From assembly GCA_025266875.1 (NCBI GenBank), contig JALLLT010000023.1, positions 558,001-622,000 on the forward strand: a stretch of 64,000 bases of DNA. The letters run 5' to 3'. The stretch is from Fennellomyces sp. T-0311 (Eukaryota; Mucoromycota; Mucoromycetes; Mucorales; Lichtheimiaceae). Below, one piece after another: positions 20,216 through 22,117 of this stretch (the stretch's first letter is position 1; each line of letters begins with the position of its first letter). The position numbers and the translations under genes were made by a program. Under the pieces are notes generated by a model. That model saw only the letters and a list, made by a program, of their open reading frames with translations. It had not been told where the DNA came from and did no database searches.

Positions 20216-21305
20216 CTAATTTTTATCTTTCTTGCTCTTCTTCTCTTTTTTCTCTTTTTTCTTTTTCTTTTCGTTACTGGAGTCGTCACTGTCCTTGCTC
20301 TTTTTCTTCTTCTCTTTCTTTTCCTTCTTTTCCTTTTTCTTTTCCGCCTTGGAACGATCATCATCCTTGCTCTTCTTTTTCTTCTTCTTTTCCACGGCAC
20401 CATCATCCTTTTCGCGTTTTCTCTTGACGCTGACTTCTCCATCGTTTCGTTTCTCATGATGGGCAAGATAATCCTGCATCACACGAGCATATTTTCCTGT
20501 TTGCTCAACCAGGCCAAGACCACCCTTGCGTGCTGTACGCCCTTCACATGCAGCAAATAATTCCGCATCCGTCATTTTGATCGAATAATCCTTTCCATCG
20601 TCATCACTGTCGTCCTCGCTGGTAGAAGAGGGTGAGGTGGACTTGGGCGTCGATTCATTCGACCTGTCAAAATTTTTGTTGTCAGCAAAAGTGATGTCTT
20701 TCATTAAGTGGTTTCTATGGTCACTTACGGCTGCAACACTGACGAACTCTTGACAAATCCGCTGTATAATGAGGAACGAGCGACGGTTTGTGCCATGCTG
20801 GAATGAATCGTCTTTACTGAATCCATCAAGTTGGCTTGATCTGCCATGTCCGACATGGACGATGCTGGAGACGATTCCTTTGCTTTAGCTGCTGGGCGAT
20901 AGGTGCTAAGAATACCGGTTTCCGATTTACGATTGTCGCTTTTTTTCTTGGTTGCTACTCGGATCTAGATCATGGTTGAGTCACTCATTCAGCTCCCCCT
21001 TTCCCGAAAACATACCTCGTTCTCTTCTTTCTCCACAGTAACAGAACTAGCACTCTTATTATACAGGTGATCCCACCAGGCAAAGTCCCATTGTTGCTGG
21101 TTCTTGCCAACGCCCTTAGTGTCGTTCTTCACTTTGACGGTGATATGTTTGGCATTACCGTGCTTCTCTTTGCCTAAACCCTCGCCGCTAATTATAAACG
21201 GTTATGTAAAACAAGCAGAGGGAGATCGTGGAAATATATACGCTACGTTTTCCAACCGAATTTCTCGAGCTGTGTTTTGGCAAAGGAATCGTCCCACTTG
21301 TCCAT
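20216..21305 (-). CDS. gpatch4: G-patch domain protein 4 (GPATCH4-like)
   Basis: Four exons (21247-21305, 21016-21187, 20729-20964, 20216-20663) give 304 aa. The N-terminus LEKFGWKTGEGLGKEKHG is a G-patch, followed by VKVKNDTKGVGKNQQQWDF and WWDHLYNKSASSV, the block that marks GPATCH4 rather than PINX1. The middle contains DAELFAACEGRTARKG and the last 80 residues are an almost pure Lys/Glu/Asp tract (KEKKEKKEKKKK), as in nucleolar relatives. G-patch proteins activate DEAH helicases; GPATCH4 is nucleolar and linked to rRNA modification. Its start lies 62 bp downstream of the LSM12 stop on the same strand. Confidence 0.88.
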
Positions 21306-21367: not shown

Positions 21368-22117
21368 TCAATTTATTTGTTTCTTTCCAACCGTTTTCGT
21401 TCGCCTTCCAACTATACCAGAGCCGCTTAGTCCACGATCCACACGTTGGCTATCGAAACGTACCACTTTCTTTACACGCGCCAAGGAGGCAGCGGATGAA
21501 GCATTGGCTTTGCAGTTATCGATCCCGTAAGGAGGTTCAATAAGCACTTCATCCAGAACGACGATGGTATCATTTGACCAACGGCATGGTAATCTAACAA
21601 ATAAAGTTAGAGGCTAGAGCTGCGTTTGGCAGGCAAAGCGAGTTACGTTTTGCTTAATGCGTCAAAGATGTCCTGTGCTTCCTTGGTAACACCGACGCCC
21701 ATCTTGGCTACCCGTTGGCGCATATTCTTGACACCACTGGATTCGCGCTGTTCCAATCGGTCCACATGGACATAGTTGATAGGTAAATAATCCGCAATGC
21801 CCTCTTCGTTCGAAAGCACTTCTTTGATGTGTGATACTTTGATGATACGGAACGCAAGCCCCTTTCGCGAGTGTTGGCTGTTGGGCGAGCACTGTAAAGT
21901 AGCAAGTCAAGGATAAGACACTTTCTTTTAAGCAGTAAAAAAATAAGCACGTTGGAGTAATAAAAAGGATATCTAGTGCAAGGCAATTCGTCATGCGATC
22001 GTACGTATAGATGCGCCCTTGGATCTCTTCATTCGAAGCAGTCTTAATCTTGATTTGTCGACCGACAAGCCATTCCATTGTTTTCTTTGGCGTCTTTTGA
22101 CGCGTGGTGCTTTCCAT
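21368..22117 (-). CDS. lsm12: LSM12 homologue (Lsm plus anticodon-binding-like AD domain)
   Basis: Three exons (21973-22117, 21647-21893, 21368-21593) give 205 aa. The N-terminal Lsm part reads LVGRQIKIKTASNEEIQGR and IYTYDRMTNCLAL, joining to ECSPNSQHSRKGLAFRIIK; the C-terminal AD domain has RQRVAKMGVGVTKEAQDIFDAL, CRWSNDTIVVLDEVLIEPPY and NCKANASSAASLARVKKVV, all characteristic of LSM12, a cytoplasmic RNA-associated partner of ataxin-2/Pbp1. The first intron (21894-21972, 79 nt) begins ATATCCTTTTT, contains TTATCCTTGAC, and ends TTTAC: a U12-type AT-AC intron. No GT-AG pair in this stretch joins the two conserved blocks in frame. The second intron is a normal 53-nt GT-AG intron. Confidence 0.92.

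What the first reader, a model, noticed from the sequence alone, without database searches (positions are those of the whole stretch)
21894..21972. Textbook U12-type AT-AC intron in the LSM12 gene
The only way to join the two conserved LSM12 blocks (NCLAL and ECSPNS) in frame is an intron from ATATCCTTTTT to TTTAC. The donor is the U12 consensus, TTATCCTTGAC is a near-perfect U12 branch site, and the branch A lies 13 nt from the 3' end. Exon phase (145 nt before, 247 after) is consistent. It is the only such intron among roughly ninety I placed in this window. Minor introns are rare in fungi and lost in most lineages.
Basis: partly seen in the sequence, partly recalled or inferred. Interest (0 to 1): 0.88.

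Follow-up and report, generated by a model that had tools for sequence, protein, structure and literature searches.

The report
AT-AC minor intron in fungal LSM12
The LSM12 gene of a mould (likely the Mucorales fungus Fennellomyces) carries a short stretch with all the sequence marks of a rare AT-AC intron, predicted to be removed by the cell's second, 'minor' splicing machine; the same genome holds 34 more matches to the same A-starting pattern, ten of which join into recognisable protein domains, so it is a well-made member of a known class rather than a lone oddity.

Summary
On the minus strand, 21972-21894 is a 79-nt AT-AC intron, /ATATCCTTTTT...TCCTTGAC-12 nt-AC/, phase 1, first of three in LSM12; removing it gives a 186-aa protein whose LSM12 domain spans the junction. 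The genome has U6atac above Rfam's cut-off and a U11/U12-25K gene. U12 and U4atac RNAs were sought, not found; U11 was not sought. It is not alone: the donor-plus-branch pattern has 44 genome matches, 3 reversed. All 39 TATCCTTTT matches of a relaxed search were read: 35 begin with A, 2 G, 2 C. A Pfam domain spans the predicted junction in 13 of 29 loci scanned (11 A-type, 2 G-type). Proteins of other fungi read through what must be the same donor at the same codon. Two corrections: the deposited protein from the same contig implies a cut 2 nt downstream (AT-AG, D49 for E49), and LSM12 intron 1 is a listed U12 intron in fly and human, there GT-AG (PMC2831892). New member of a known kind; the near-exclusive AT-AC make-up is the novel part.

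The parts
21973..22117 (-). LSM12 coding exon 1 (145 nt, ends in phase 1: ...NCLAL + G)
   Evidence: open frame from ATG at 22117; LSM12_LSM domain begins here
21894..21972 (-). U12-type AT-AC intron 1, 79 nt
   Evidence: donor, branch site and AC terminus, in-frame join; one of 44 genome-wide pattern matches vs 3 reversed
21962..21972 (-). 5' splice site ATATCCTTTTT
   Evidence: read directly; 34 further loci share ATATCCTTTT, as the search pattern demands
21906..21916 (-). branch-point element TTATCCTTGAC, branch A at 21907
   Evidence: 12 nt before the AC end; the A and T before CCTT are the commonest letters there, 23 and 24 of 35 A-type loci
21894..21898 (-). 3' splice site TTTAC/
   Evidence: the AC that leaves NCLAL-E-CSPNS
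21647..21893 (-). LSM12 coding exon 2 (247 nt)
   Evidence: end of LSM12_LSM and start of AD domain
21594..21646 (-). intron 2, ordinary GT-AG, 53 nt, CTAAC branch-like site
   Evidence: in-frame join, agrees with P0001
21464..21593 (-). LSM12 coding exon 3 (130 nt)
21412..21463 (-). intron 3, ordinary GT-AG, 52 nt
21373..21411 (-). LSM12 coding exon 4 with stop (39 nt)
   Evidence: 186-aa product, identical to P0001 except residue 49
21892..21970 (-). intron as implied by the deposited protein P0001 (AT-AG, same length, shifted 2 nt)
   Evidence: the translation of this alternative is identical to P0001

Best explanation
The 79-nt stretch 21972-21894 (minus strand) is most likely a U12-type AT-AC intron, the first intron of LSM12, predicted to be cut out by the minor spliceosome of this mould. 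Shown here: the donor /ATATCCTTTTT, the branch element TCCTTGAC with its A 13 nt from the end, the AC, the phase-1 in-frame join, a U6atac gene, a U11/U12-25K gene, and a genome-wide set of like sequences, some of which join known protein domains. Inferred: U11 and then U6atac would pair with TATCCTT, U12 would pair with TCCTTGAC and bulge the A, and both cuts fall at /AT and AC/ rather than 2 nt downstream. From the shared codon and donor that proteins of other fungi imply, the intron was likely inherited from an ancestor of Mucoromycota, Glomeromycota and Zoopagomycota, and is probably the counterpart of the U12 (GT-AG) intron 1 of animal LSM12, with a change of subtype on one side.
For: Structure and frame. 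LSM12_LSM 18-73 spans the junction at residue 49, E 1.2e-9. TATCCTTN{35,65}TCCTTRAC: 44 genome matches vs 3 reversed; relaxed form 60 vs 9. In 13 of 29 loci joined by the rule (AC for A-type, AG for G-type, best open frame chosen), a Pfam domain over its cut-off spans the junction, e.g. VPS11, MIOS, Gaa1, RNB, FancD2, NF-YB, Alg6/8. U6atac 45.8 bits, cut-off 33, E 8.9e-9, with AAAGGAGAGA and a terminal T8. U11/U12-25K: PF18036 E 2.5e-10, and PDB chain 8r7n_B, named U11/U12 25 kDa protein, E 1.1e-5. Proteins of other fungi read [DHN]-I-L-F, the translation of xAT-ATC-CTT-TTT, at the same codon: Lichtheimia ornata, Apophysomyces ossiformis, Umbelopsis nana, Rhizophagus irregularis, Thamnocephalis sphaerospora. 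NF-YB of the same genome: the AT-AC cut gives ITSEASD, the commonest form in homologs, a 2-nt shift gives ITSESSD. LSM12 intron 1 is U12 in fly and human (PMC2831892, section 8 read).
Against: No transcript was seen. The deposited protein of the same contig has D49, which needs the AT-AG cut 21970/21892. Of 71 LSM12 homologs with residues there, D stands in 23, Q in 17, E in 7; within Mucorales D stands in 21 of 24, outside in 1 of 44. Three of 120 listed NF-YB homologs carry SESSD, as a real 2-nt shift would give. U12 RNA was not found by Rfam (best 21.4 bits, cut-off 53) or by three patterns with cmscan of their loci; U4atac not found by Rfam or by a pairing pattern; U11 not searched. AC ends 9-15 nt after the branch element in 25 of 35 A-type loci, against 13, 19, 18 and 14 in four control windows: an excess, but 10 lack it there. 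16 of the 29 joined loci gave no domain over its cut-off across the junction.
Confidence: 0.9

Rival explanations
1. The intron is real and minor-type in its signals but is cut as AT-AG, 21970 to 21892, as the deposited model has it, so residue 49 is D.
For: P0001 from the same contig is letter for letter that product. D stands at this place in 21 of 24 Mucorales rows. If those models rest on RNA, they speak for this cut.
Against: It would move the 5' cut to +3 of the ATATCCTT donor, unlike any U12 intron I know (recalled). Outside Mucorales D is 1 of 44, Q 17, E 4, and within them Zychaea mexicana has E. In NF-YB of the same genome the same shift turns SEASD into SESSD, a change seen in 3 of 120 listed homologs. 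D is what a model gives if it keeps the intron's first AT after the exon's G and uses the AG two bases past AC, so I read it as an annotation artefact; in other species exon 2 may also simply begin with AC or AT.
Confidence: 0.08
2. The stretch is removed by the major (U2) spliceosome through some other pair, or is not an intron.
For: Some AT-AC introns elsewhere are U2-type (recalled). The frame runs through the stretch without a stop, giving a 151-aa reading. No transcript was seen.
Against: That reading loses the rest of LSM12, since 79 is not a multiple of 3, while the spliced one gives both LSM12 domains. The one in-frame GT-AG pair leaves 18 codons of intron translation. Donor and branch are both U12 consensus and the pair is enriched 44 to 3 genome-wide.
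Confidence: 0.02

Closest known systems
U12-type intron 1 of LSM12 in Drosophila (CG15735) and human
   Same: Same gene, first intron, U12-type (PMC2831892, section 8 read); splicing of the fly lsm12a minor intron depends on Miso in ovaries (PMC12084885, passages).
   Different: GT-AG there, AT-AC here; whether it is the same codon in animals was not tested.
U12 introns of Rhizopus oryzae and Phycomyces blakesleeanus
   Same: Same intron class in relatives that have U12-type snRNAs (PMC2846911, section 11 read).
   Different: There 1 AT-AC with 2-3 GT-AG (Rhizopus) and 8-9 AT-AC with 8-12 GT-AG (Phycomyces), from ESTs; here 35 A-type to 2 G-type pattern matches. The two counts were made in different ways.
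Minor introns of Rhizophagus irregularis and Basidiobolus meristosporus
   Same: Fungal minor introns with snRNAs shown for Rhizophagus (PMC10639083, sections 30 and 34 read, passages else); an R. irregularis protein implies the same donor at the same LSM12 codon (P0045).
   Different: 205 and 249 introns reported there; the subtype make-up of those sets was not seen.
AT-AC-rich minor introns of Blastocystis ST1
   Same: AT-AC majority: 196 of 253, human about 26% (PMC10639083, passage).
   Different: Unrelated lineage, median length 39 bp; the bias here, if it holds up, is stronger.

Membership tests
U12-type (minor) spliceosomal intron | 5' splice site /RTATCCTT | tested here: met
   ATATCCTTTTT at 21972-21962; the rule RTATCCTT is in PMC2846911
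U12-type (minor) spliceosomal intron | branch element close to TTCCTTRAY, A about 10-15 nt from the 3' end (recalled) | tested here: met
   TTATCCTTGAC, A 13 nt from the end
U12-type (minor) spliceosomal intron | AT-AC or GT-AG termini with in-frame exons | tested here: met
   AT-AC, phase 1, LSM12 domain spans the junction; the deposited model implies an AT-AG cut 2 nt on
U12-type (minor) spliceosomal intron | splicing seen in RNA | not testable with these tools
   no transcripts at hand
U12-dependent spliceosome in this genome | U6atac snRNA | tested here: met
   45.8 bits, cut-off 33
U12-dependent spliceosome in this genome | minor-specific protein U11/U12-25K | tested here: met
   PF18036 E 2.5e-10 on C108, with a weaker neighbouring exon (E 0.057, one stop); PDB 8r7n_B E 1.1e-5. 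Two other loci reach PF18036's cut-off only with neighbours
U12-dependent spliceosome in this genome | U12 snRNA | tested here: inconclusive
   not found; the genome search scored 42 of 2158 candidates and its control never rang over the cut-off
U12-dependent spliceosome in this genome | U4atac snRNA | tested here: inconclusive
   not found; 48 of 1263 candidates scored
U12-dependent spliceosome in this genome | U11 snRNA | not tested
U12-dependent spliceosome in this genome | CENATAC (PF14968, link recalled) | tested here: inconclusive
   one match of 17.8 bits, cut-off 25.3, read as chance
Ortholog of the animal LSM12 U12 intron | same codon and phase in animals | not tested
   animal gene structures are not held here; only gene and intron number compared

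The most novel reading that the evidence does not exclude
This mould's minor-intron set is almost purely AT-AC: its minor spliceosome has nearly lost the GT-AG subtype that makes up most minor introns in most species, so the LSM12 intron, GT-AG in animals, is AT-AC here as part of a genome-wide subtype shift.
Probability: 0.5. Interest if true: 0.55.

Novelty: new member of a known kind. Interest (0 to 1): 0.42.

Why it matters
It gives a well-supported minor intron in a gene whose first intron is minor in animals too, so the age and subtype history of one intron can be traced across opisthokonts. It suggests that public fungal gene models mishandle AT-AC introns in recognisable ways (read-through DILF or EYPF, or a 2-nt AT-AG shift), which would hide minor introns from surveys that start from annotation. 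If the 35 to 2 excess holds, it gives a mould for asking what sets the first base of minor introns.

Tried and rejected
U12 snRNA by Rfam RF00007, by GAGTAAGGAAAATAACG with 2 mismatches, CCTTN{4,14}AGTAAGGAA and GAGTAAGGAAAA, with cmscan of 28 loci (L001 and L009, 11 loci, 15): no U12. The one-mismatch hit L009 and the look-alike L018 have no U12 match and were dropped; the three weak Rfam places (L087-L089) were not examined further. Pattern hits against reversed controls: 7 to 20, 11 to 20, 11 to 7.

U4atac by Rfam and by a pattern built from the expected pairing with this genome's U6atac: none, control also none.

CENATAC: under its cut-off, rejected. PDB search with the LSM12 protein: no match up to E 1. 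Rfam scan of the window: nothing over the gathering scores.

Rows dropped: 16 of the 44 strict matches do not continue with a T after TATCCTT, among them four copies of one repeated sequence (L032, L035, L036, L064), and were not counted as candidates. Of the 60 relaxed matches 12 were not fetched, all TATCCTTTG. Eight of the 35 A-type loci (L046, L053, L059, L090, L092, L093, L094, L101) were not scanned with Pfam.

Papers: none pairs 'AT-AC introns' with Mucorales; three pair AT-AC, minor introns and Rhizopus; none holds AT-AC, minor introns, fungal and predominantly together.

Full report
What is there. The gene lies on the minus strand. Exon 1 (22117-21973, 145 nt) ends ...NCLAL plus the first base of the next codon; then come ATATCCTTTTT at the start of a 79-nt stretch, and at its end TTATCCTTGAC, 7 nt and TTTAC; exon 2 (21893-21647, 247 nt) goes on with the rest of a GAG codon and CSPNS. 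Two ordinary GT-AG introns of 53 and 52 nt follow, and the product has 186 residues. Pfam finds LSM12_LSM at 18-73 (E 1.2e-9) and the anticodon-binding domain at 89-174 (E 2.8e-29). The LSM domain spans the junction.

Alternatives for the junction. Enumerating AT, GT or GC donors with AC or AG acceptors that join NCLAL to CSPNS in frame gave 13 pairs, 5 of them with stops. Only 21972/21894 (AT-AC, E) and 21970/21892 (AT-AG, D) leave a single codon. The first fits the U12 donor. The second is implied by a deposited protein, P0001 of Fennellomyces sp. T-0311, whose contig length, 677,527, equals that of the window's contig, so it is very likely the same assembly; it differs from my product at residue 49 alone and equals the AT-AG product letter for letter. 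I take the AT-AC cut as right and the deposited one as an annotation artefact. First, the U12 donor starts at 21972. That cuts both ways: it may be one artefact repeated, a true D from an exon 2 beginning AC or AT, or the true cut. Third, the NF-YB gene of the same genome has a like intron (L097, AC 18 nt after the branch element). There the AT-AC cut gives ITSEASD and the 2-nt shift ITSESSD. Of the 120 NF-YB homologs listed (1374 passed the threshold), a search string found SEAS or SEAA forms in 101 and SESSD in 3; it failed on 16, of which 8 read FVTSEASD and 1 FVTSEAAD on inspection. The three SESSD rows are Pilobolus, Spinellus and Piromyces. RNA would settle it.

Not alone in the genome. 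TATCCTTN{35,65}TCCTTRAC has 44 matches in 45.6 Mb, against 3 for the pattern reversed. A relaxed pattern has 60 against 9. Sequence was obtained for 48 of the 60: first base A 39, C 5, G 3, T 1. All 39 with TATCCTTTT were read: A 35, G 2, C 2. Neither pattern constrains the first base. For 29 of these loci I joined predicted exons, using AC for A-type and AG for G-type by rule and choosing the longest open frame, and scanned Pfam. A domain over its curated cut-off spans the junction in 13: LSM12, importin-beta N-terminal (L029), VPS11 (L039), MIOS (L041), Brr6 (L043, only 7 residues past the junction), an Alg9-type mannosyltransferase (L052), Gaa1 (L057), RNB (L061), FancD2 (L095), NF-YB (L097) and Alg6/Alg8 (L104) as A-type, and Cornichon (L062) and Sec1 (L045) as G-type. 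Sixteen gave none; a TBC domain (L028) was just under its cut-off. AC ends 9-15 nt after the branch element in 25 of 35 A-type loci, against 13, 19, 18 and 14 of 35 in four windows further on.

The machinery. U6atac is at C101:572577-572709, 45.8 bits against a cut-off of 33, with AAAGGAGAGA, CCCCUUGAUAAGGA and eight terminal Ts. Its predicted fold is not notably better than shuffles (z -1.2). U11/U12-25K: a C108 exon matches PF18036 with E 2.5e-10 and a neighbouring one weakly (E 0.057); the two read together match PDB 8r7n_B, named U11/U12 25 kDa protein, with E 1.1e-5. U12 and U4atac RNAs were not found; the genome searches scored 42 of 2158 and 48 of 1263 candidates, so this is not evidence of absence. 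U11 was not sought.

Conservation. Of 111 LSM12 homologs, six match a read-through motif after the NCLAL-like block: Lichtheimia ornata, Apophysomyces ossiformis, Umbelopsis nana and Rhizophagus irregularis as [DHN]ILF, the translation of xAT ATC CTT TTT, and Modicella and Podila as weaker HIILV and HIFLV. Thamnocephalis sphaerospora (Zoopagomycota) shows DILF in the alignment. NF-YB models of Gigaspora rosea and two of Dichotomocladium read SEYPF, and one of Syncephalis SEYPC, the phase-2 reading of such a donor. The DNA of these species was not seen, so the shared donor is inferred from proteins. LSM12 intron 1 is U12-type in fly and human, GT-AG in both (PMC2831892, section 8 read). Whether the codon is the same in animals is untested.

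What is known. Minor introns in Rhizopus and Phycomyces (PMC2846911, section 11 read) and in Rhizophagus, Basidiobolus and others (PMC10639083, sections 30 and 34 read, passages else) are in print. The AT-AC share is about 26% in human and 77% in Blastocystis. The paper searches listed none that, in the parts I saw, describes an LSM12 minor intron in a fungus or an AT-AC-dominated set in Mucorales; the supplementary intron lists of PMC2846911 and PMC10639083 were not seen and may hold both.

Verdict. A minor intron with strong support, ordinary in kind, in a genome with dozens of its like. The 35 to 2 excess of A over G, measured only on short introns with a strong consensus, is the point worth following.

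Noticed in passing
genome G000, loci L027-L070 and L090-L109: 35 short minor-intron candidates beginning ATATCCTTTT against 2 beginning G; before CCTTRAY the letters A and T are commonest (23 and 24 of 35), where the recalled animal consensus has TT.
   Followed up: partly
P0006, P0013, P0036, P0045, P0066 (LSM12); P0138, P0157, P0180, P0193 (NF-YB): Public fungal proteins carry what looks like read-through of U12 donors (DILF in LSM12, EYPF or EYPC in NF-YB), a fingerprint that could find minor introns from protein databases alone.
   Followed up: partly
L032, L035, L036, L064: One sequence with GTATCCTTCATCATGC at four places on three contigs, probably a repeated or mobile element, not a minor intron.
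   Followed up: no
L067, intron start near 1536 (C139:516836): A-type candidate joining what looks by eye like a voltage-gated channel segment (no Pfam match); such genes are rich in minor introns in animals (recalled).
   Followed up: no
window 20216-20884, minus strand: Open frame with a long lysine-rich tail next to LSM12, nucleolar-protein-like by eye.
   Followed up: no
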